IMG/VR virus record: IMGVR_UViG_3300028569_000023
Span: 1 to 64,000 of that record
DNA from: a virus
DNA: 64,000 nucleotides
Reading direction: 5' to 3' (one strand)
The notes below the pieces were generated by a model, which saw nothing but the letters and a program-made list of their open reading frames with translations, was not told the origin of the DNA and ran no database searches. This document shows, one piece after another, positions 1-62,122 of this stretch. The translations under genes and the position numbers were made by a program. The stretch's first letter is position 1. Every line of letters begins with the position of its first letter.

Positions 1-702
1 AACACATACCCCCCCCCTAGCAATAACCATGCCAAGTAATAGAACTCCGAAGCTCATGCAATAACTATACTAACCGTACAACTGTATGGTATAACAAAGC
101 GTATGCAAGGATCGTACCTGGTACAGAAGTTGCAGAGAGATGCAAGATCTATGCCAATGGTCCATCCTATGCAATAGCCATGCTAGCGAAATAATATTTC
201 GTTGTGACGATATGTGACCATATATGTTATATCTAAACAATCCTAACACTCCTATATATACATGATGCGATAACACACCCTGAAGAACTATTAGACACTG
301 ACTAAACTATAACACCACCATAATCCCTAATGATAACAATGCGTTATAGCTAAGTAGTTGATATGTGCTGTCTAATACGTAAACAGGGTATATTCTAATA
401 GTTTCAATTAGTTAAGTCCTGGTATGGTATTAGCAACATACCTAATCAGAACACGCTGAACGTTAGCAGAATGGTCCTAGTCGTGAGACTCGGATATCAA
501 ACGAAAAACTCGACACCTAATAAACACTGTAAGTGTGATTCGAGCTAACTATATACCACGCGCTAACACCGCTTAGACGTATAGTTAGATGAGACCGAAA
601 CTCTCATTATAACCTTGCTTAGAATAGAGCTACCGAGGTCACTGGAACTTCGCGATTGTGCGAATGATTCTACACCTTAGGAGAACACCTCAGGCAAGGC
701 AT
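1..702. other. Hairpin-rich non-coding leader region
   Basis: No credible protein gene is visible on either strand. There is a run of nine C at 9-17, an imperfect repeat GCAATARCCATGC at 20-32 and 171-183, and many short perfect stems. Stems include CGAAAT/ATTTCG (187-201), GGTATG/CATACC (421-442), CTAACTATA/TATAGTTAG (545-588), TGAGA/TCTCA (590-606) and TTCGC/GCGAA (649-664). The only reading frame over 60 codons lies on the minus strand at 70-276, has no ribosome site and looks spurious. The stretch could be a structured RNA, a long leader or a replication or packaging region. I see no clear promoter. Confidence 0.5.
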
Positions 703-703
703 A

Positions 704-769
704 ACACGAAAAGCGGGGCTTAGGTCCCGCTTAGACGCGAATGAGTCTATAACGCGTCCTGATGAGTGT
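704..769 (+). ncRNA. Type II hammerhead ribozyme
   Basis: All elements of a circularly permuted (type II, stem II open) hammerhead are present in order. Stem II 3' strand is ACAC (704-707), followed by GAAA (708-711). Stem III is 7 bp, 711-717 with 726-732. The cleavage triplet is TTA (731-733). Stem I is GACGCG (734-739) with CGCGTC (753-758). The core CTGATGA is at 759-765, and stem II 5' strand GTGT is at 766-769. The canonical A15.1-U16.1 and G10.1-C11.1 pairs are kept. Cleavage is predicted after A733, leaving the first operon's mRNA with a 5'-OH 64 nt before its first ATG. Confidence 0.88.
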
Positions 770-797
770 AAAGACTTAATAACTAAGGAGTTATAAC

Positions 798-947
798 ATG
801 ATCAAACGAGTCGAACAAAGTGACGCAGTTATCTTCGGAAAGACTTTCAAAGTGAAACGTGGCACAAAAATCCTTGTTAAGGGCAAGTTAAGCATTGAAT
901 CTATTGACGCTTTGATTCGCTGCGGCTTTACAATCGTTTATAAATAA
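798..947 (+). CDS. Small basic hypothetical protein
   Basis: A 49-residue Lys/Arg-rich protein with no recognised domain. A strong ribosome site AAGGAG (785-790) sits 7 bases before ATG. It is the first gene after the hammerhead, so its mRNA should begin at or near the cleavage site. The next gene has the same AAGGAG arrangement. Confidence 0.7.
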   Translation: MIKRVEQSDAVIFGKTFKVKRGTKILVKGKLSIESIDALIRCGFTIVYK

Positions 948-3709: not shown

Positions 3710-3840
3710 GAACTTTAAGTGTACAATTTCTTGACAGTGTTGACTCGACTGGATTCTACTATTATCTGATTCGCCGCGCTAATGGCAAACTAATGGCACG
3801 CCCTATTCACAATCAACCAAAGTATCAATACAATAACTAA
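3706..3840 (+). CDS. Small basic hypothetical protein, 44 aa
   Basis: ATG 3706 overlaps the preceding stop (ATGA) and the frame runs 44 codons to a TAA immediately before intergenic element B. Basic, Tyr/Asn-rich C-terminus. Function unknown. Confidence 0.62.
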   Translation: MRTLSVQFLDSVDSTGFYYYLIRRANGKLMARPIHNQPKYQYNN

Positions 3841-3863
3841 ACTTTCTAGAGAATCTTAATACC
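3840..3863 (+). promoter_or_regulatory. Early intergenic element, copy B
   Basis: CTAGAGAATCTTAATACC directly after a stop codon, followed about 30 bases later by ACCGGGCGCGGG and the leader of the rIIA-like gene. The first 24 bases are identical to copy A. CTAGAG can pair with CTCTTG (5 of 6) to form a small hairpin. Confidence 0.5.
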
Positions 3864-3927
3864 CTCTTGACATTGCTTGGTTTTTAAGTACCGGGCGCGG
3901 GACCAATTTTAACATAAGGAGTTTTAC

Positions 3928-6015
3928 ATGAGACTAAATAACGCAGTGAATACACTTGAAACTAATGCTCAAACTGTATCGACAAACTTCGGAATTGGCG
4001 ATGTCGGCATGGTTATTGAAATTCTTAGGTCTAAGCTTTACTCTCATCCTATTAGGACTTTGGTACAAGAGTACGCTTGCAATGGCCGCGATGCAATGCG
4101 TGAAGTTAAGTCGCAAGATCGCTTGATTATAACAGCGCCTACAACTTTTAATCCAGAATTCCGAGTGAGGGACTTCGGACCCGGTATCTCGCCCGAACGT
4201 ATTGAGAACGTATTCGTTCTTTACGGCGCGAGCACTAAGCGTAAAGATAATACGCAAACTGGCGGCTTTGGTATCGGTGCTAAATCGGCTTGGAGTTATA
4301 CCGATAGCTTTACCATTACGACATTCATTGACGGCACTAAGCGCGAATACGTGGCGCATATCGGTACTAGTCAAAACGGTAGCCTTGACTTTGTATCAGA
4401 GTCTAAAACAGACGAAAAGAATGGCACAGAGATTAAGATCGCAGTGAATCTTCAAGATATTGTGAAGTTCCAAAAGGCAATTCAACGCGCAGTATTCTTT
4501 TGGGAAGAGAAAGAAAAACCAGAACTTCGTTGTGTACAAGTGCCTGATCTTTCTAAGCAAAACGGTGATGAACTTCGAATTGAGGAACTCCTTATCACCG
4601 ATAAGAGCTTGGATTTTGTCGAGTCTAATAACGGTTACTACGGATCACGCGGTGGTTTCTTTCTGATTGTTGACGGCGTACCGTATCCGATCGATGATGA
4701 ACTTGTTAATGAAAACGAGAGTCTAAAGAACTTTCGTACTAAAGTATCGCACATAGTTAACGTATTTTGTAGCGTACAAACTGGATTTGTTGAAGTAAGT
4801 GCTAATCGTGAGCAACTCTCTGATTCTAAAGCTACCCGCACTGCGCTTAATCTTATCGCAAAACGGTGGACTAATCTTCTCGACAAGTATCATTCCGATA
4901 AGTTCCAAGATTGTAAAACCGTAATGGATTATCTCAAAGCTCAAGCTACATTCGAAAAGGTATTTGTTCGCTCAAGTTTCTCGAATGAAGTGGACGGTTA
5001 TAAGATTAACGATTGTCGAGTTACGAGTGACTTGTTTGATAAGACTAAGTGTACGGAAGTATTCGGAACTTCAAACGATAACTTGAAATACTCTGATAAG
5101 ACTAAGAGAGTATTTCATATCGACGAACTCCAAACGGTTTATATCGATGATTTGAAAAGCGATACGTCAAAGGTCGAGAGGGCAGCAGTGTTGAGGGGAG
5201 CAGTTAAAACCACTGGTAAAAAGAACACGATACTTGTATTATCTAATGGAATACACGTTACTAAATACGATAATAATCACAAGGCTACTAGTACATTCAA
5301 AGCAATGACCGATGCGGAATGGGATAAGCTTGTATTGGATCTTGAAATTAAGAAACTGTCAAGTGTAACTCCCGATTATCGTGCAAAGAAAACAAGATCG
5401 GTTAACTCTTCGGGACAAAAACAAAAAGGCGAGATCACTGTATGGCGCAATAGCAGTGGCAATAAAAAGAATATCGATCTTGATAATGTCACTTTGAAAT
5501 ACGTATATCTTAAACTTGATGATACGGAAAAGCATCGCGAGTTTCAGGGAGTGGTTCATCTTATGGGATACGAGCTTGTACGAATGGGAGACGGATCGAT
5601 TAAGAAGATTAAAGATGACGCTGATTTCATGGCATTTGATAAGTTCGTAGAAAGTCTTAAAGATAATAAGAAGTTAAAGCAAGCTTGTATTGATCGTCAG
5701 TTTATCAATAGTAACTGTTATATTCAGCAACTAGTTCGAATCAAAAAAGAAATCACTAATCCGGACATTAAAAAGATGCTTGATAAAACTAATGTTACAG
5801 CACAAGGTCATTACGAAAACGGCATAGCGCTATCTCCCTCTGTTATTACCCTTGTATCTTCATGGGATGGAATGAAACAAATGGAAAAAGAAATCGAAGA
5901 ATTTGCTAAACTAGTTAAGACAAAATATGCTATCGTTACTAATGTAAATCAATATGCATCCGGTACTGATCAAGAAAACGAAAACATCATCTGGTATATC
6001 AATAACCGTAAATAA
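3928..6015 (+). CDS. rIIA: rIIA-like GHKL-family ATPase
   Basis: A 695-residue protein with the GHKL (gyrase/Hsp90/MutL) ATP site near its N-terminus: N-box EYACNGRDAM (residues 48-57), DFGPGIS (82-88) and GGFGIGAKS (112-120). This layout, length and the rIIB-like gene 11 bases downstream match T4-type rIIA, a membrane-associated protein tied to lysis timing and exclusion of rival phages. The basic C-terminal half has no motif I recognise. AAGGAG precedes ATG 3928; intergenic element B lies upstream. Confidence 0.85.
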   Translation: MRLNNAVNTLETNAQTVSTNFGIGDVGMVIEILRSKLYSHPIRTLVQEYACNGRDAMREVKSQDRLIITAPTTFNPEFRVRDFGPGISPERIENVFVLYGASTKRKDNTQTGGFGIGAKSAWSYTDSFTITTFIDGTKREYVAHIGTSQNGSLDFVSESKTDEKNGTEIKIAVNLQDIVKFQKAIQRAVFFWEEKEKPELRCVQVPDLSKQNGDELRIEELLITDKSLDFVESNNGYYGSRGGFFLIVDGVPYPIDDELVNENESLKNFRTKVSHIVNVFCSVQTGFVEVSANREQLSDSKATRTALNLIAKRWTNLLDKYHSDKFQDCKTVMDYLKAQATFEKVFVRSSFSNEVDGYKINDCRVTSDLFDKTKCTEVFGTSNDNLKYSDKTKRVFHIDELQTVYIDDLKSDTSKVERAAVLRGAVKTTGKKNTILVLSNGIHVTKYDNNHKATSTFKAMTDAEWDKLVLDLEIKKLSSVTPDYRAKKTRSVNSSGQKQKGEITVWRNSSGNKKNIDLDNVTLKYVYLKLDDTEKHREFQGVVHLMGYELVRMGDGSIKKIKDDADFMAFDKFVESLKDNKKLKQACIDRQFINSNCYIQQLVRIKKEITNPDIKKMLDKTNVTAQGHYENGIALSPSVITLVSSWDGMKQMEKEIEEFAKLVKTKYAIVTNVNQYASGTDQENENIIWYINNRK

Positions 6016-10218: not shown

Positions 10219-10653
10219 ATGAACAAGTATTTGATGGCAGCTATTCTAATGGGACTCGGAGCTTGCGGAGATCGCGATCAGGTTCAACTAATTCCTGGAC
10301 CTAAGGGCGAACAAGGAGAACGCGGCAGCGACGGTGAAGATGGTATTGATGGTAACGACGGTCAGGACGGCGAAGACGGAAGCGATGGTCAAGACGGAGA
10401 ACAAGGTCCTATCGGTCCACAGGGTCCACAAGGAATTCCAGGTTTGAACGGTACTACGTTCGAAATCGTACCTCTTTGTCCATCACTTAGTGGTTCTTAT
10501 CCAGAAGTTCTTTTCAGAATTAACGGTAGTCTTTACGCTATTCTAGACGGAGGTCCTCATTCTGATAGACTGGCTTATCTTCCTAATGGTACATATCAAA
10601 CAACGGACGGTAGATCGTGCGTCTTTACTGTTTCAGGAGGTAACGTACTATGA
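10219..10653 (+). CDS. Collagen-like lipoprotein
   Basis: 144 residues. The N-terminus is a lipoprotein signal peptide with lipobox LGAC (Cys about residue 16). Residues about 29-76 form some 16 consecutive Gly-X-Y triplets rich in Asp, Glu and Pro, such as GPKGEQGERG and GPIGPQGPQG, a collagen-like triple helix. The C-terminal 65 residues contain two Cys and look globular. It should be exported and anchored to a bacterial membrane during infection. The next gene overlaps by 4 bases and is also exported. Confidence 0.85.
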   Translation: MNKYLMAAILMGLGACGDRDQVQLIPGPKGEQGERGSDGEDGIDGNDGQDGEDGSDGQDGEQGPIGPQGPQGIPGLNGTTFEIVPLCPSLSGSYPEVLFRINGSLYAILDGGPHSDRLAYLPNGTYQTTDGRSCVFTVSGGNVL

Positions 10654-26048: not shown

Positions 26049-26335
26049 TGATTACAGCTAAAGAAGCAAAAGCTAATTCACAATTGGCGTCACAACCTGC
26101 ACCTATTCCTGTTATTCTAGAAGCAATTGAATACAGAATACGAGATGCTGCTCAAAAAGGTAGAACTGAGGTAGAAGTAACGCCTAGTACTACTCCTGCT
26201 ATCAATAATTATTTTATATTAGAAAATCTTCAATATCTCAATAAACTAGTAGAAGAATTACAATCTTTAGGATATAGCGTAACTTTAAATTCAGTCGCTA
26301 TTATCACATATGGTATTGTGGTGAGTTGGAAATGA
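26048..26335 (+). CDS. Hypothetical protein, 95 aa
   Basis: ATG 26048 is chosen for the TAATG overlap and the preceding GGGAGGAA. Mixed alpha/beta with a middle segment RIRDAAQKGRTEVEV, a pattern seen in many small phage proteins of unknown role. Confidence 0.66.
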   Translation: MITAKEAKANSQLASQPAPIPVILEAIEYRIRDAAQKGRTEVEVTPSTTPAINNYFILENLQYLNKLVEELQSLGYSVTLNSVAIITYGIVVSWK

Positions 26336-26763
26336 AACAATCAGTCGTTATTCTAGTAGGAACTCCGGGATCGGGAAAATCAACGCTCGCTAAAGAGTTC
26401 ACCGATCATGTTCGTATTTCGCAGGATGTTCTAGGATCTCGCCAGAATTGCATTAACGAGTGTCATAAGCATCTATCTTCGGGAAAGTCCGTGATTATCG
26501 ATAGAACTAATATCAATCGTCAGCAGCGAGGATACTGGACAAATATCGCTAATTACTATGGAATTACGAATGTTCATTGTATTGTCTTGGAATTAGATCC
26601 AGAAGAATGCATTCACCGTATTTCGCATAGAGTAGGACATGAAACTATCTCGGAACATTTAAGCATTGACGAGAAGAGAAAGATCGTGTATAATTTTCAT
26701 AAATCGTTCGAGATGCCAAGTCTCAACGAAGGATTTAAAACAATCACGATTACAAAAGGATGA
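26332..26763 (+). CDS. P-loop kinase, polynucleotide-kinase-like (AAA_33 type)
   Basis: 143 residues from ATG 26332. Walker A GTPGSGKS (residues 10-17), then IIDRTN, where T4 polynucleotide kinase and zeta-type kinases have a substrate Asp, and a lid-like LDPEECIHRISHR. It matches the N-terminal kinase half of T4 Pnkp in size; the 3' phosphatase half is absent. It probably phosphorylates 5'-OH ends, though another small substrate is possible. Notable with the hammerhead and RNA ligase in the same genome. Confidence 0.75.
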   Translation: MKQSVVILVGTPGSGKSTLAKEFTDHVRISQDVLGSRQNCINECHKHLSSGKSVIIDRTNINRQQRGYWTNIANYYGITNVHCIVLELDPEECIHRISHRVGHETISEHLSIDEKRKIVYNFHKSFEMPSLNEGFKTITITKG

Positions 26764-30698: not shown

Positions 30699-30941
30699 AT
30701 GACAAACATAATTCCTGTAGAGTACTTTAAATTCCGTTCAGAGTTCAACACTATGAGTTATACCGAGCTTATGGCAGTATGGGCTGAGCAGTTCGAAAGT
30801 GGTTATTCTTGGAAATCTAAGCCTATCCAACAGTATAAGCTTAAAGCGATGTTTGAGACGATCAAAAGTCGCAGCACTAATCCTGCCGTAAAGGATTTCA
30901 TCAATAACCAATCTAAAGCACTGAACTTCGGAGATATTTAA
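30699..30941 (+). CDS. Hypothetical protein, 80 aa
   Basis: Ribosome site GAGGGG precedes ATG 30699. Helical and aromatic. It overlaps the polymerase start by one base (TAATG). Function unknown. Confidence 0.68.
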   Translation: MTNIIPVEYFKFRSEFNTMSYTELMAVWAEQFESGYSWKSKPIQQYKLKAMFETIKSRSTNPAVKDFINNQSKALNFGDI

Positions 30942-33684: not shown

Positions 33685-33959
33685 AAGCATATTTAATCGA
33701 TACAAAAGGTAATATCTTCAGAACTTTAGATGTTCAATATCCTCCTCTTTCTTCGTTTTATATGGCGGTTTACAACCCTATTTCGGAAGCGAGATTCTGG
33801 GATGAGCAAGAAATACCTGACTCTATTTCCACTATTAAAACGTTAGAGTTCGATTTAGTGACAGACGTAGATGATTTTATCACATGGGACGATTACGAAG
33901 ATTCGCAATTGACAGATTTCGACGAACATGTTATTTATAAACTAAGGAGTACAAAATGA
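33681..33959 (+). CDS. Acidic hypothetical protein, 92 aa
   Basis: Acidic and aromatic, with the look of a small alpha/beta protein. Its last bases carry AAGGAG for the RNA ligase gene. ATGA overlaps on both sides. Confidence 0.67.
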   Translation: MKAYLIDTKGNIFRTLDVQYPPLSSFYMAVYNPISEARFWDEQEIPDSISTIKTLEFDLVTDVDDFITWDDYEDSQLTDFDEHVIYKLRSTK

Positions 33960-35089
33960 GCGAAGAGTCAGGTTCAGTATTTATGGTTCCAGTCGTTGAG
34001 ATCGTAAATGTTAGACCTCATCCTAATGCCGATAGACTAGACATCGTAAAGATCCTCGGCTTTGAAACAGTCGCTACTCGCGATATGTACAAGATCGGCG
34101 ATTCTGTTTTATATATTCCCGTAGACTCAATTCTACCAGCGGATATCGAGAAGGTGCTATTTGCTAATTCCAAGATGAAACTAACAAACTCCCGAGTTCG
34201 CGCTGCGAAGATCAGGGGATTCGTTTCTGAAGGAATGATTACTAAGCCTGAACAATTTGGCATTACGAATTACAAACATAAGCAAGATTTTAAGGTTCGT
34301 TTAGGAATCACAAAGTATCAACCGCCTGAACGGAATATCCAAGGAATGAAAGCTAAAACTAATCGAGTGAAGCTTAAAGATCATCCGTTGTTCCATTCGT
34401 ACAATGGTCTTAATCGCATTCAGTGGCAAGAAGATCTATTTCAAGAAGGTGAACTCGTCGTGGTGCAGTGTAAAATTCACGGAACGAATGCTCGCTATTC
34501 GATTTTACCATACACCGTCGATACTCTTTGGAGAAAAGTTCTTCATTTCTTAAAACTAACTCCTAAGTTTGAAAAGAACTACGGAAGTAATAATGTTCAG
34601 ATCTCTAGGAAGTTTGGATATAAGGGATTTTATGGAAGCGATATATACGGGGACACTGGAAAGAAAGAAAAGATCTTCGAAAAGTTGAAACAGAACGAGA
34701 TTGTATATGGAGAGATCGCTGGACCTGGGATTCAAAAAGGTTATTCATACGGATTGAAAGGTCATGAGTTTTTCCTATTCGATGTTAAGATTTACGATCC
34801 TGTCAAGAACGAAATGAAATGGCTAAATCCTGAAGAAGTCGAAGCGTTCGCTACAGAACGAGGATTCAAGCTAGTTCCTATTGTATTTAAAGGTGCGTTT
34901 AATAGGAAGAAAATGGAAGAACTCGCGACGGGTCCTAGTCTTTTAGATCCAAATGAGAAAGTACGAGAAGGCGTTGTAGTTAAAGCTGTTCTCGATTACA
35001 ATAGTCCGTTAGCTAAAAGTGACAGAAAAGCATTGAAGATTATTAATCCTGAATATCTATTAAACCCGGAGAATACAGATGAGCACTGA
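33956..35089 (+). CDS. RNA ligase, Rnl5/DRB0094-like
   Basis: 377 residues. N-terminal OB-like domain (about 1-120) with RPHPNADRLDIV, then a nucleotidyltransferase domain with motif I CKIHGTNAR (Lys173), EIAGPGIQKGY, motif IV EGVVVKA and motif V LKIINPE. Domain order matches the Deinococcus Rnl5 type, with the OB fold first. It seals 5'-phosphate to 3'-OH RNA ends. With the kinase at 26332 it could repair host tRNA breaks or process hammerhead-cut RNA. Confidence 0.87.
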   Translation: MSEESGSVFMVPVVEIVNVRPHPNADRLDIVKILGFETVATRDMYKIGDSVLYIPVDSILPADIEKVLFANSKMKLTNSRVRAAKIRGFVSEGMITKPEQFGITNYKHKQDFKVRLGITKYQPPERNIQGMKAKTNRVKLKDHPLFHSYNGLNRIQWQEDLFQEGELVVVQCKIHGTNARYSILPYTVDTLWRKVLHFLKLTPKFEKNYGSNNVQISRKFGYKGFYGSDIYGDTGKKEKIFEKLKQNEIVYGEIAGPGIQKGYSYGLKGHEFFLFDVKIYDPVKNEMKWLNPEEVEAFATERGFKLVPIVFKGAFNRKKMEELATGPSLLDPNEKVREGVVVKAVLDYNSPLAKSDRKALKIINPEYLLNPENTDEH

Positions 35090-48369: not shown

Positions 48370-49859
48370 TAGAATGTACCTACTTTTCCTAGATTATTTA
48401 AATACTGTTTATACGCATCGACTGAATTGAGATTACCGTAGTTTGATGCTTTCTGACGCGTTTCATTGACTTTAGATCCAGCTAGGTCTAATGCTTCCTT
48501 TTGTAGCTTATTAGCCTGTACTATTAGACGGTCACGTTCCTTTTTATCACCGGGATATCTCTTATCTAATTTAGCGTAGATATCTCTGAGTTCAGGTTTT
48601 TGACTAGCAAAGAACTCTCGGTCTCCTGGGTTTTTATTATGTATTGCACTATTTTGTGCGGCTTTAGAATTGGTAATATAATGTTGTAAACGTTCTGCTT
48701 CTTTATTCAAGTTATTTTGTTCATTACGAGTACGGGATAAACCTTCGATACTTGATTTATCTTTTAGATCGGCAGTACTTTCTTTATATTGTCCAGCTTT
48801 ATCATAAGCACCGACTTCTTTACCGGATAGTTTCTGAAGCGCTTTAAGTTGAGCGGCTTTTTCTGGACTCATGAAAGACGAAACGTCAGAAAGAACGTCT
48901 TGTCCTTGTTGTTGTAAGTTCATAATCTTAGCAATTTGAGCACCTGCTTCAGGACCTGAAAGACCCGAATTCACTAGAGCGTCATACTGAGATGACATAT
49001 AGTCAGTATCTTCTTTACTAAGACCTAATTGTGATCCTATTTGTGAAATCTGTTCTTTACGACGATTATTATTGTTCAATCCTTTTTCATCAGGAGCAGA
49101 AAGAGCGCTTGCTGCTCCGGTCATTGCATTAGATTTAGCTAATTCGCGTTCTTGTGCTATTTTTTGAACACCTTCAGCTTCGGAGCTAATTCCAGTAATC
49201 CCTGTGTCTAAAGTATTCTTAGTTTGAGTACCGAATGTTTGATTTTCTGCGGCAGCTTGTTTAGCGGCACCTTCAGCTTGACCGATTTGTTGTTCAACTC
49301 CGCGAGATAGACCGCGTAATGCTCCAGATGCGGCTTGGATACGTTTAGCGTCTTGACCAAGAAGGAGAGCATCGGTGCGTTGAGTACCTTGTGTGTATTT
49401 AGAAGTAGGATTGAATTGCTGAAGAAGACCATATCGGCCTTGTTCAGTATTAGAACCACGAGCTAGTGTGTTAGCACGTTCTGCTTCATTTTTAAGTTCA
49501 TCTTGATTTCGTAGGGTCTTAGGACCTTGATATGTGCCCGAACTAAAGCGGCTGATAGCAGCTACGTCCTGATCATCGACATTACCAGTCGCTGCCTTAC
49601 CGATGATAGCATCACGTTGAGCGGCTTGTTCTTGTCCGAAAGCGTTTTGTTTTAAGTCTTGATTGAAACGATCAGCAGCATTAGCTGTTGCTTGTTGGAT
49701 ATTTTGTCCAGTTTGTTGAAGACTACCAGCGACAGCGGAACCTAATTGATTACCTTTATTGGCATCAATTACTTTATTTAAATTAGTAAACCCTGAACCT
49801 TTTTGCTTTTGTTTACGAGGATCTGAAGAACCTGGGTTTTGAGGAGGCATAATAGGCAT
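48369..49859 (-). CDS. Internal virion-type structural protein, Gln/Ala-rich
   Basis: 496 residues, Gln/Ala/Asn-rich, low complexity, helical. Similar in style to its three neighbours and likely part of the ejection complex. Ribosome site AAGGATAT before ATG; a recurrent late motif lies about 22 bases upstream. Confidence 0.66.
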   Translation of the reverse strand: MPIMPPQNPGSSDPRKQKQKGSGFTNLNKVIDANKGNQLGSAVAGSLQQTGQNIQQATANAADRFNQDLKQNAFGQEQAAQRDAIIGKAATGNVDDQDVAAISRFSSGTYQGPKTLRNQDELKNEAERANTLARGSNTEQGRYGLLQQFNPTSKYTQGTQRTDALLLGQDAKRIQAASGALRGLSRGVEQQIGQAEGAAKQAAAENQTFGTQTKNTLDTGITGISSEAEGVQKIAQERELAKSNAMTGAASALSAPDEKGLNNNNRRKEQISQIGSQLGLSKEDTDYMSSQYDALVNSGLSGPEAGAQIAKIMNLQQQGQDVLSDVSSFMSPEKAAQLKALQKLSGKEVGAYDKAGQYKESTADLKDKSSIEGLSRTRNEQNNLNKEAERLQHYITNSKAAQNSAIHNKNPGDREFFASQKPELRDIYAKLDKRYPGDKKERDRLIVQANKLQKEALDLAGSKVNETRQKASNYGNLNSVDAYKQYLNNLGKVGTF

Positions 49860-56737: not shown

Positions 56738-57153
56738 TACTCACCCTTGAGTTTTTGTTTTTTAAGAAGTAATTCTTGAATCTTAGCGTCGATTTCGTCT
56801 TCGGACATGCGATCTGATTCTTCGGACATCTCATCAGGCATCGCCATAGCATCTGATTCGGATGCTTCTTCGAGCATTTCGTCTTCAGCACCGTCAGAGT
56901 ATTCTTCGGACTGATCTTGAAGACCATCCATACCTTCAACGATATCTTCAGCTTTTTCTAAGCCTTTTTTCAGACTTTCAGCATCGGGAGCGGCGACTGA
57001 AACTTTCTTCAGACCGCCGAGTTTAGAACCCATTTTATCGGCCATATCAGCGCGAAGTTCTTGAAGAACGGACTTTTTAGCGCCCATTTCTTCAGGTTTG
57101 ACTTTCTTGCCTTCTTTTAGTTTTTTAGCAAGAAGTGACTTAATCTTATCCAT
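56737..57153 (-). CDS. Acidic charged structural or scaffold-like protein
   Basis: 138 residues: basic N-terminal 30 residues, then an extremely acidic Met/Glu/Asp/Ser middle and a basic tail. The composition fits a scaffold or assembly chaperone. One-base overlap with the connector gene. Confidence 0.58.
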   Translation of the reverse strand: MDKIKSLLAKKLKEGKKVKPEEMGAKKSVLQELRADMADKMGSKLGGLKKVSVAAPDAESLKKGLEKAEDIVEGMDGLQDQSEEYSDGAEDEMLEEASESDAMAMPDEMSEESDRMSEDEIDAKIQELLLKKQKLKGE

Positions 57154-58717: not shown

Positions 58718-60451
58718 TCATCTGGGGCCCATGCAGATGAGGTTAAAGTTGCCAGTACTGTCAGCCACGGTTGATGCGCCTGAGTTATAGATTCCCGTGA
58801 TCTTGACCGACGTGCTTGATAGCACTTGGGCTTGGGCTCCATATGTGATTCCGGTATTTGTATTATTGAGAGACGCAACACATGATGGGTTGTCAGAGAA
58901 GGTTCCTGTCGCAAGCGTTAGCGTACAAGAACTTGACGAGATATTCCCAATAGAAGAGATCCAAGATCCGCTTTGACGGGTGATAGACGCCGAAGTCGAG
59001 CAAACTACAGTCGCTCGCTCAACTCTCTCCACCCCTGGACTGCTCGAATACACACTCCCAGGAATGAGCACTTGGGGAGACTTGGGACAGGGGGAGGAGG
59101 CGGTGACGTCTATAATAGCATCAAAAGCAATTGCAGGGTTTGATCCAAAAAGCGAATCTGCGTTTTGAGCAGCAAACGGATTGGCGGTTGATGTCTTGTC
59201 GTTATACCGAATGGCAACACTTGTCCCACCCGATAGCTGCCATATGGTGCCAGTCTTTACCGCCGTGTTTGAAGTCGAGCTTAAGTCCCAATCTCCAGCC
59301 TTAGTGTCACCTTGTGTGAATGTCGGGATTGTAAAGCCCGCCGGAAGCGGAATGATTGCAGGTGTTGCTGTTGGAGTGCCGCCTTGGAATCTGCCCCGCA
59401 TCATAATCTTTTGAGGCGCAATACACTGATAGCGAATATCGACGTTCGTTACCGTTCCAAGCCCCGCAATGGCCGGAGTGTAACTCGTAGGTAACACCCC
59501 CGGAGCATCAAGACGAGCTACGGTCTCGGAGGACGTGGGGAAGCGGGTCACAGACATTGCTGGCCCTGCCTGTATTGTGTAGGAAGAATCAGTTACTCCG
59601 CTGACAAAAAACTCAAAGTAATCATTTGCTGCTGCCTGAATAACGCACGGCTGAGTCGTTAAGGTGGTGAACCCTCCCGCGACGAGACTTGCGGTGCAAG
59701 CTGTAACCTCAGAGCCATTTTTGCGAATGGTAGAGAAAAAATCCCCTGCTCCAGTATTGTCGAGATAAGCGTTGGCGCTTACTAAAAAGTTACCCGAAGA
59801 ACGAACGACGTAACGATTGTTAGTTGTGTCAAAAGAACCCAAGACATCAAGTGTTTTTGAGTTAAGTTGAACCTTTTGAAAACCTGTAGAGCCAATGGCT
59901 TGTGTGGTTGATCTTGTTGCAATAGCTAGAGTCTGAGCCTGAGCCACGGTGCCGATGCTTTTAGCTGCGCCGAGATAAACGTTTGCTACGTTAATAGTGC
60001 TTGTTGTAGCAGCAACGGTTTGAGCGAAACGTACAGTAGTTGCTGTAGAAAGATCACCACATGGGTAAACGAGTGATACTTTATTCACAGTAGTCGTTGC
60101 TGTAAGAGGTGTCGAATTCGCAATAACGCCGTTGATGAGAACCTGAGCTTGCACTGTCGCGCCAGATCCAAGTGTAAGTTTGTAATCAGCGGTCATTTCG
60201 CACGCTTGACCGGACAGCGAGCGGTCTAATGAGTTCGTTGTGAATTCGGCATAATCCGTAGCGGCATCGAGAACGATCTGAACATCGGAGATAGCAGTTA
60301 AAGGAGTAGTTGTGTTGCGAGTAATGACTGCACCAGATGCCGTAATACCACGCGTAGAGTTCTTTAAACCGCTAGGATTCTTGATGAAGTTTCTACCGAA
60401 AGTACCTTGACCTTCGAGGTAATCGATTAATTGTAAACGGTTGGATGACAT
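58718..60451 (-). CDS. Tail fibre or receptor-binding protein, GC-rich
   Basis: 577 residues, Ser/Thr/Ala-rich and beta-type. The N-terminus (LIDYLEGQGTFGRNFIKNPS) probably attaches to the tail; Cys pairs occur in the C-terminal half. Bases 58670-60000 are visibly richer in G and C than all neighbours, so the tip was probably acquired recently. It most likely binds the host receptor. Confidence 0.75.
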   Translation of the reverse strand: MSSNRLQLIDYLEGQGTFGRNFIKNPSGLKNSTRGITASGAVITRNTTTPLTAISDVQIVLDAATDYAEFTTNSLDRSLSGQACEMTADYKLTLGSGATVQAQVLINGVIANSTPLTATTTVNKVSLVYPCGDLSTATTVRFAQTVAATTSTINVANVYLGAAKSIGTVAQAQTLAIATRSTTQAIGSTGFQKVQLNSKTLDVLGSFDTTNNRYVVRSSGNFLVSANAYLDNTGAGDFFSTIRKNGSEVTACTASLVAGGFTTLTTQPCVIQAAANDYFEFFVSGVTDSSYTIQAGPAMSVTRFPTSSETVARLDAPGVLPTSYTPAIAGLGTVTNVDIRYQCIAPQKIMMRGRFQGGTPTATPAIIPLPAGFTIPTFTQGDTKAGDWDLSSTSNTAVKTGTIWQLSGGTSVAIRYNDKTSTANPFAAQNADSLFGSNPAIAFDAIIDVTASSPCPKSPQVLIPGSVYSSSPGVERVERATVVCSTSASITRQSGSWISSIGNISSSSCTLTLATGTFSDNPSCVASLNNTNTGITYGAQAQVLSSTSVKITGIYNSGASTVADSTGNFNLICMGPR

Positions 60452-60469
60452 GTTTTATAATTCCTTTTC

Positions 60470-62122
60470 TTATAGTTCAGAACGAGATACTTCGCGCCAT
60501 AAGGACGATCCGTTATCCCAGCGGAGGGTTAGAATTGATTCAGAATAGGATAACCATTCTCCGTTTAGAGAAAGACCTGTTCCGTTTTCTAAAATGATGT
60601 AATTGGTATTAGAAGTACCGATAAGACGTAAAGTTTGTCCGTCGATAACCCCTAGTGAAATCTGAGGATTAGAAGTAATGTTTACTTCTCCGGAATTACT
60701 AACAATGTAAATATCTTGATCAGTACCTGCGGTAGTTGGAATACCACCAGCGGCTGTGATAATAAACGGCGAAGCGAATGATCCGGACACTATACGGCCT
60801 GAACCGCCTGATCCTCCGATAACCCTATATTTATTTGTATCATTATCGTAGTATAGATAAAGAGATGCGTTATTAGATAAGATTAGATCGAATCCTGTTC
60901 CTGTTAAAATACTCTCAGTTACTGTTCCTGAATCATTTTTTATAGTAATAGAATTACCAGTACCGTTAGTTAAAATCAGATATTCAGGAACACCCGTTGC
61001 CGTAATACCTCTAACTGAAATAAGACCTGAATTTGTAACTTTTAGTACTGTTGAATTAGGAAAAGTTAAAGTTTTAAGACTTCCAGTTGTAGTGGAATCA
61101 ATTACAATACCCGCGCCGTAAATAGCATCTAGATGTTCGAGAACTCCGCTAACTTTTAAACCGCTTGACGATTTGACAAGGGTAGAACCGTCGAGTTCGA
61201 GAGATAACTGATTTCCAGAAATCTCAATTCCTTGACCGTCAGTAGTGATTGTTCCGACTCCAGAGAATTGAACAAACGTTACAGCGGTACTACCAAGAGT
61301 TCCACCTGAATTGATGGTACAGACCCATCCGGTATCAGATCCGGTAGTTCCTTCTTCAACGAATACGAACGCTGAAGTTAGTTTATACCAGGAGTTAGCA
61401 TCGGATGAACGAACTGGAGCACCTGAAGCTTGTACGATATAAATACCGTTATCTGCTTGTGTCGTTTGGTTCTTGATGAGAATACGATCATTGGTAACAA
61501 GAACGATACCGTCGATTGTTGCGCCGTTTTGAAATGCAGTAGCAAGCGTACCGTTTGCGGTAGTCGCGACACGTACTGAATCTTTAACGTCTAGACCTTG
61601 AGCTACTGAATCTACGTATGCTTTATTTGCGAGATCGTTAGCGCCGAGAGGAGCGAAACTGGAAGTGATAGCATTAGCGCCCATATCCAGAACACCGGAC
61701 ATTGTATCCCCGGCTTTATTTACTTTATCGTTAAGTTGAGTCTGAATGCTCGATGTAACACCAGCAACGTGACCTAATTCTGTACTAGTTACGGCACTAG
61801 GAGAAAGAACTCCCGAACCGTCCGATTGGACAGCCCGGTTAGCGGTTAGAGTAGCGAGCTTCGAAACTGCGATATTTGCGCCAGATTTGATATTCCCGTC
61901 GTCAATATTGGAAATGACGTTACCTGTACCATCGGCATCGATGGTCTTATTGGTAAGAGTATCGGTACTAGCGTCGGTTACAACTTTTTCTAAGTTAGAA
62001 CCATCGTGGAATTTCAACCGTCCAGTTGAATCATCTACTTCCATTTCGCCTTTTTCGTCGGCGGTGGAAGTAGACTTAGGAACGATTCGAAGTCCTAGAA
62101 AGAACTTTTTGAATAAATTCAT
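60470..62122 (-). CDS. Tail fibre protein
   Basis: 550 residues. Contains DTLTNKTIDADGTGNVISNI, SIQTQLNDKVNKAGD and GDTMSGVLDMGANAI segments, typical of phage fibre shafts. A related module is present in the next fibre upstream (62155). The N-terminus has FFLGLRIVPKS. Ribosome site AAGG is before its ATG. Confidence 0.78.
   Translation of the reverse strand: MNLFKKFFLGLRIVPKSTSTADEKGEMEVDDSTGRLKFHDGSNLEKVVTDASTDTLTNKTIDADGTGNVISNIDDGNIKSGANIAVSKLATLTANRAVQSDGSGVLSPSAVTSTELGHVAGVTSSIQTQLNDKVNKAGDTMSGVLDMGANAITSSFAPLGANDLANKAYVDSVAQGLDVKDSVRVATTANGTLATAFQNGATIDGIVLVTNDRILIKNQTTQADNGIYIVQASGAPVRSSDANSWYKLTSAFVFVEEGTTGSDTGWVCTINSGGTLGSTAVTFVQFSGVGTITTDGQGIEISGNQLSLELDGSTLVKSSSGLKVSGVLEHLDAIYGAGIVIDSTTTGSLKTLTFPNSTVLKVTNSGLISVRGITATGVPEYLILTNGTGNSITIKNDSGTVTESILTGTGFDLILSNNASLYLYYDNDTNKYRVIGGSGGSGRIVSGSFASPFIITAAGGIPTTAGTDQDIYIVSNSGEVNITSNPQISLGVIDGQTLRLIGTSNTNYIILENGTGLSLNGEWLSYSESILTLRWDNGSSLWREVSRSEL
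60472..60483 (-). promoter_or_regulatory. Late junction motif, diverged copy
   Basis: GTTCTGAACTAT on the minus strand, 20 bases before ATG 60451. Only the AACTAT end matches the other copies. Confidence 0.28.

What the first reader, a model, noticed from the sequence alone, without database searches (positions are those of the whole stretch)
704..769. Type II hammerhead ribozyme in the leader of the first early operon
Seen: every core nucleotide (GAAA, TTA cleavage triplet, CTGATGA) and three helices with 4, 7 and 6 perfect pairs in the circularly permuted order. Known: hammerheads occur in some phages, and the open-stem-II form is found mainly in prokaryotic and phage sequences. Inference: it trims the early mRNA, leaving a 5'-OH end and releasing the upstream structured RNA.
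Basis: partly seen in the sequence, partly recalled or inferred. Interest (0 to 1): 0.85.

Follow-up and report, generated by a model that had tools for sequence, protein, structure and literature searches.

The report
Hammerhead ribozyme in phage early leader
Just before the first gene of this bacterial virus's early gene cluster lies what looks like a genuine self-cutting RNA (a type II hammerhead ribozyme), and relatives of the virus carry one to three such ribozymes in the same place, so the virus probably uses them to trim its early messages; this kind of ribozyme in this kind of place was already known.

Summary
Window 704-769 (+) holds an intact hammerhead core (CGAAA, UH cleavage site A733^G734, CUGAUGA) with open stem II, stem III (9 bp) and stem I (6 bp): type II architecture. 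Shuffled genomes of this size give 0.07 loose hits and none this strong. Rfam's models do not detect the site; comparative evidence does. I found 65 relatives through the capsid protein. Nine of 21 long records (window included) carry hammerheads in the corresponding divergent early region, in arrays of one to three (types II and III). Stems are re-paired with different bases (14 of 16 pairs change on both sides; 0/500 shuffles). A covariance model built without the window sequence finds it (E=1e-5); a model with it also finds the published HF2 virus hammerhead. Most likely it cleaves the leader just upstream of the first gene's ribosome-binding site, separating a structured leader RNA from an early mRNA that starts with 5'-OH and stem I. 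Cleavage and function are untested. New member of a known kind: Perreault et al. 2011 describe hammerheads flanking phage genes, and HF1/HF2 carry one before an early operon.

The parts
704..769 (+). type II hammerhead ribozyme (stem II strand to stem II strand)
   Evidence: core and three helices read directly; held-out model R2 hits 700-777 at 30.3 bits, E=1e-5
704..707 (+). stem II 5' strand, pairs with 766-769 (open helix)
   Evidence: covarying helix in relatives
708..711 (+). GAAA core (A711 pairs with U732)
   Evidence: invariant in the 9 type II ribozymes aligned
711..732 (+). stem III hairpin, 9 bp, loop UUAG
   Evidence: fold
733..734 (+). predicted cleavage site A733^G734 (3' of H17)
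   Evidence: position follows from hammerhead numbering; cleavage not tested
734..758 (+). stem I hairpin, 6 bp, 13-nt loop; would be the 5' end of the cleaved mRNA
   Evidence: covarying helix
742..748 (+). loop I segment UGAGUCU, putative pseudoknot partner of 772-778
   Evidence: complementarity; 2.9% of loop shuffles as good
759..765 (+). CUGAUGA catalytic core
766..769 (+). stem II 3' strand
772..778 (+). tail segment AGACUUA, putative pseudoknot partner of loop I
   Evidence: position as described for type II in PMC3088659
785..790 (+). Shine-Dalgarno AAGGAG
   Evidence: sequence
798..947 (+). first small ORF downstream (49 aa), no family match
380..703 (+). structured leader without a credible ORF, predicted to be severed as the 5' product
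   Evidence: 380-733 folds at -97.5 kcal/mol, z=-3.3; no ORF of 30 aa or more with a Shine-Dalgarno in the sense strand

Best explanation
Window 704-769 is a hammerhead ribozyme of type II architecture that acts in cis on the early rightward transcript. Once transcribed, it cleaves between A733 and G734. The upstream product is a structured leader RNA ending in the stem III hairpin plus A733 with a 2',3'-cyclic phosphate. The downstream product is the early mRNA, which begins with a 5'-OH on the first base of stem I, followed by the core remnant, a Shine-Dalgarno sequence and a 49-aa ORF. The effect is probably to detach the leader and give the early mRNA a defined, hairpin-protected 5' end. 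In relatives with two or three ribozymes the same device would cut the early transcript into one-gene or short pieces. Shown: sequence, structure, comparative conservation and position. Inferred: that it is transcribed, that it cleaves, and what cleavage does for the phage.
For: Complete core and stems with a chance rate near zero. The sequence folds better than shuffles (z=-3.84). Relatives found by capsid protein carry hammerheads in the corresponding divergent early region; control 3 hits in 5.84 Mb of Markov sequence. In 9 aligned type II ribozymes, 98.6% of cells pair, 14 of 16 pairs change on both sides, and no shuffle or slid register matches this. A model built without the window finds it at E=1e-5, next best 13.7 bits. 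R1 detects the published HF2 type II hammerhead (E=1.8e-4), which Rfam RF02276 also calls. Rfam's type III model independently detects partner ribozymes in G022 (E=1.5e-7) and G007/G009 (E=1.5e-4) (L110 and L103). HF1/HF2 precedent: hammerhead 13 nt before the first ORF of an early polycistron, with the transcript's 5' end mapped within 3 nt of the cleavage site (PMC3088659).
Against: No Rfam hammerhead model detects the window copy, even at E=10. Without pseudoknot energies the predicted ensemble disfavours stem II: pair probability 0.01-0.09, hammerhead fold 1.2-3 kcal/mol above the MFE. Twelve of 21 long records show no hammerhead, scattered over the capsid tree (7 changes, no clustering), so the element is dispensable or often replaced. 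In Perreault et al., 4 of 18 consensus-conforming hammerheads were inactive in vitro (PMC3088659). No transcription data exist here.
Confidence: 0.85

Rival explanations
1. A hammerhead that cleaves, but whose main purpose is the upstream product: it gives a precise, protected 3' end to a functional structured leader RNA, and the effect on the mRNA is secondary.
For: The leader 380-733 is highly structured (z=-3.3) with no credible ORF. In G021/G022 about 290 nt of noncoding RNA upstream of a ribozyme is conserved (within a 757-nt alignment at 71%). In G007 and G033 two ribozymes bracket roughly 200-340 nt that looks largely noncoding.
Against: In G021, G022 and G023 the ribozymes bracket a protein-coding gene. 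No leader RNA is shared across the group; G000's leader aligns with no relative.
Confidence: 0.2
2. A hammerhead fold that is slow or inactive in vivo, a relic without a processing role.
For: No tool here tests activity. Stem II competes with other folds. Many relatives lack the element.
Against: Core invariance with stem turnover across relatives and the fixed place are hard to explain without selection for the fold.
Confidence: 0.08
3. Not a ribozyme: a chance match in a structured leader, for example two hairpins acting as a stabiliser or attenuator.
For: Stems III and I would fold as two stacked hairpins in any case; no Rfam match.
Against: Chance rate, held-out model and covariation.
Confidence: 0.02

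Closest known systems
HHphage of haloviruses HF1/HF2 (type II hammerhead, HF2 10292-10359; Perreault et al. 2011, PMC3088659)
   Same: Type II architecture; directly upstream of the first ORF of an early polycistronic transcript of a tailed double-stranded DNA virus; our model R1 detects it.
   Different: Archaeal host; HF copies carry a core insertion near C3 linked by the authors to high salt, whereas the window core is consensus. HF has a mapped 5' end; the window does not.
Clustered hammerheads flanking genes in prophages (Perreault et al. 2011, PMC3088659)
   Same: Several hammerheads close together around single small genes, as in G021, G022 and G023 here.
   Different: Here they recur at one place across a group of long phage records; the window itself has only one.
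Rfam RF02276 Hammerhead_II
   Same: Same permutation and core.
   Different: The model does not detect the window copy.
glmS ribozyme of Bacillus subtilis
   Same: Self-cleaving RNA in an mRNA leader leaving a 5'-OH on the coding product.
   Different: Unrelated fold (own knowledge), ligand-controlled, and its 5'-OH product is destroyed by RNase J1 (PMC3997798); no ligand domain is recognised here.

Membership tests
hammerhead ribozyme | catalytic core G12-A13-A14-A15.1 / U16.1-H17 / C3-U4-G5-A6-N7-G8-A9 | tested here: met
   read at 708-711, 732-733, 759-765; all non-variable core positions conserved in the 9 aligned type II ribozymes
hammerhead ribozyme | three helices enclosing the core | tested here: met
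   4, 9 and 6 pairs; covariation in all three helices
hammerhead ribozyme | self-cleavage 3' of H17 giving 2',3'-cyclic phosphate and 5'-OH | not testable with these tools
   needs in vitro transcription
type II hammerhead | stems I and III closed by loops, stem II open | tested here: met
   order 704-707, GAAA, stem III hairpin, UA, stem I hairpin, CUGAUGA, 766-769
type II hammerhead | loop I / 3' tail pseudoknot (present in a majority, not universal) | tested here: inconclusive
   7-bp complement 742-748/772-778; 2.9% of loop shuffles as good; relatives mostly lack it
Rfam RF02276 Hammerhead_II (curated model) | score at or above gathering threshold (37 bits) | tested here: not met
   no match at gathering or E<=10. 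The model works on HF2 (41.1 bits). The threshold is a curation criterion rather than a defining property of the ribozyme class; a type III partner with consensus core in G022 also falls below its own threshold (46.7 against 48.5). So the window is filed as a hammerhead of type II architecture, not as a member of the Rfam family as now modelled
clustered hammerheads of prophages | two or more hammerheads around one gene | tested here: not met
   only one in the window genome; met in G021, G022, G023

The most novel reading that the evidence does not exclude
In this phage group, hammerhead arrays are a dedicated early-transcript dicing system. They excise defined RNAs (single-gene mRNAs and, in G007/G033, largely noncoding RNAs of roughly 200-340 nt) whose 5'-OH and cyclic-phosphate ends are then healed and sealed, possibly into circles, by phage end-repair enzymes. 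The window genome itself encodes an Rnl5-like RNA ligase (33956-35089) and a polynucleotide-kinase-like protein (26326-26763).
Probability: 0.06. Interest if true: 0.8.

Novelty: new member of a known kind. Interest (0 to 1): 0.45.

Why it matters
It adds a phage group in which hammerheads recur at one defined regulatory place, in one, two or three copies, with near-complete stem turnover. That is strong evidence of selection for the fold in phage early transcripts, whose purpose is still unproven. It also shows that Rfam's hammerhead models miss members of such groups, so phage ribozymes are probably under-counted. A laboratory-tractable relative would let the role of self-cleavage in phage gene expression be tested directly.

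Tried and rejected
Rfam scans of the window at gathering and permissive thresholds: no hammerhead, which would have weighed against the finding had relatives not been found. Relatives through leader DNA, rIIA, RNR, helicase and TerL: no near relatives in IMG/VR or GenBank phages; the capsid alignment worked. A second hammerhead in the window leader, with one core mismatch or an extra base: no credible one. Weak model hits inside coding regions (window 56816-56888, 48857-48909) rejected as chance. Link between hammerheads and phage RNA repair enzymes: not correlated across 21 records (ligase in 4 of 9 with hammerheads and 4 of 12 without). A shared leader RNA between G000 and G021/G022 was suspected from a short motif (541-586) but no alignment supports it. 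Host: capsid hits in MAGs of different phyla do not agree, so no host is assigned. Other Rfam families in stretches of seven records without hammerheads: none.

Full report
What is there. At 704-769 on the + strand the window reads ACAC GAAA AGCGGG... CCCGCU UA GACGCG ... CGCGUC CUGAUGA GUGU. These are the core elements of a hammerhead in the order of the type II permutation: open stem II (704-707/766-769), stem III hairpin (711-719/724-732), cleavage step U732-A733^G734, and stem I hairpin (734-739/753-758). The segment 700-782 folds better than its shuffles (z=-3.84). A structural scan of the whole 86,035-base record (window plus L002, L003) finds this site only. Markov genomes of the same size give 0.067 hits at looser limits and none in 60 at this strength.

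An extra detail. Loop I (742-748, UGAGUCU) can pair with 772-778 (AGACUUA), just 3' of stem II. Perreault et al. 2011 (PMC3088659) describe this contact, loop I to the tail beyond stem II, for a majority of type II hammerheads and show that it is needed for fast cleavage in their test case. With 2.9% of shuffled loops doing as well it is suggestive, not proven. Relatives mostly have short loops of about 5 nt and lack it.

Why databases are silent. Rfam finds no hammerhead here at gathering score or at E<=10, and RF02276 alone finds none in the whole record. The same model does find the HF2 ribozyme (41.1 bits). So the window ribozyme lies outside that model's reach, and comparative evidence was needed.

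Relatives. Searches with leader DNA, rIIA, terminase, helicase and the reductase found no near relatives. A capsid alignment seeded with a Silvanigrella phage brought in 65 IMG/VR loci at 45-77% capsid identity. A search of 45 of these records for the bare core pattern, with no stem requirement, returned 14 matches. Eleven of these have full type II stems on rescoring. The reversed-pattern control has a similar raw count, so the stems, not the pattern, carry the evidence. On 17 long and 3 partial fetched sequences (window genome included), a scan that also allows one extra base after A9 gives hits at one place per genome, in arrays: G021 and G022 three each (III with extra U, III, II), G007 two (II, III), G023 two (II, II), G033 two (II, II, both with extra U), and G013, G031, G010 and the window one each. 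Two isolated hits lie elsewhere (G021 74186, G004 10958) and are taken as chance; the control gave 3 hits in 5.84 Mb. From the capsid coordinates, the arrays with strict cores lie about 13-27 kb upstream of the capsid gene on the opposite strand, like the window's (about 19 kb, across the joined contig ends).

Structure under selection. In an alignment of nine type II ribozymes (stem III interiors and long loop I trimmed to equal length, A4), 98.6% of cells pair, 14 of 16 pairs change on both sides, and neither 500 shuffles nor slid registers come near. The nine were rescored by a scanner that requires pairing, so the pairing percentage is partly by construction; the pattern search that found them did not require stems. 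A model built without the window (R2) finds window 700-777 at 30.3 bits, E=1e-5, with the next hit at 13.7 bits (E-values from a shortened calibration are rough). The full model R1 finds three more relatives, G030, G033 and G027, E about 1e-6, whose core carries an extra U after A9. An extra base in a natural hammerhead is known from the viroid CChMVd (PMC3705267; its exact place is from memory). R1 also finds the published HF2 type II hammerhead (E=1.8e-4). Rfam's type III model independently finds the type III partners in G022 and G007/G009.

Context. In the window the ribozyme ends 15 nt before the Shine-Dalgarno (785-790) of a 49-aa ORF (798-947). In several relatives the ribozymes likewise sit directly before small early ORFs. 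In G021, G022 and G023 two of them bracket one gene; the G021 and G022 products are clearly the same protein. In G007 and G033 they bracket stretches that look largely noncoding. Upstream of the window ribozyme lies a structured leader (z=-3.3). Presence is scattered on the capsid tree, which means frequent gain, loss or undetected divergence.

Mechanism. Cleavage would leave a leader RNA ending in the stem III hairpin with a cyclic phosphate, and an mRNA starting with 5'-OH at the first base of stem I. From general knowledge, RNase E prefers 5'-monophosphate and unpaired 5' ends, so such an mRNA may be stabilised in an RNase E host. In an RNase J host a 5'-OH can be an entry point for decay, as for glmS (PMC3997798). 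Since the host is unknown, the direction of the effect is not settled. Secondary-structure energy alone disfavours the complete fold by 1.2-3 kcal/mol because of stem II; tertiary contact would have to supply it, as in other natural hammerheads.

Novelty. Hammerheads clustered around phage genes, and one before the early operon of HF1/HF2 with a 5' end mapped near the cut, are published (PMC3088659). This is a new, well supported member of that kind. What is added is the recurrence in arrays at one place across a phage group that Rfam's thresholds miss.

Speculation kept apart. The window genome encodes an Rnl5-like RNA ligase and a polynucleotide-kinase-like protein. Their distribution does not follow the ribozymes, so tRNA repair (general knowledge of such phage enzymes) is the simpler reading.

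Noticed in passing
window 1-136 and L003 1902-2035 (genome 85902-86035): The contig ends repeat each other apart from about one base in a C run, so the record, classed linear, is probably a complete, circularly permuted or terminally redundant genome of about 85.9 kb. The leader thus lies between divergent gene blocks.
   Followed up: partly
window 33956-35089 (+): RNA ligase of the Rnl5 / Naegleria NgrRnl type (OB-fold plus ligase domain; PF09414, PF21189).
   Followed up: yes
window 26326-26763 (+): 145-aa P-loop kinase resembling the 5'-kinase domain of phage polynucleotide kinase; relatives G002, G021 and G022 have about 300-aa versions.
   Followed up: partly
window 30843-30923 (-): A single tRNA-Arg (ACG) on the minus strand inside the rightward gene block.
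   Followed up: no
L072 5001-6681, L073 5001-6681, L077 5001-6410: Capsid matches of some relatives (G024, G025, G027) span about 180-450 extra bases, with stop codons in G027, possibly an intron or insertion.
   Followed up: no
G021 60375-60668 (-) and G022 3840-4133 (-) in relatives: A conserved, highly structured noncoding stretch of about 290 nt between ribozyme-flanked genes.
   Followed up: partly
G030 2722-2792, G033 83227 and 83494, G027 1812-1884, G021 61016, G022 4482: Hammerheads with an extra U between A9 and stem II, recurrent in two lineages and in both type II and type III.
   Followed up: partly
G035 82576-83706 (+): A relative without a detected hammerhead encodes an RtcB-type RNA ligase (E=1.8e-122).
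   Followed up: no
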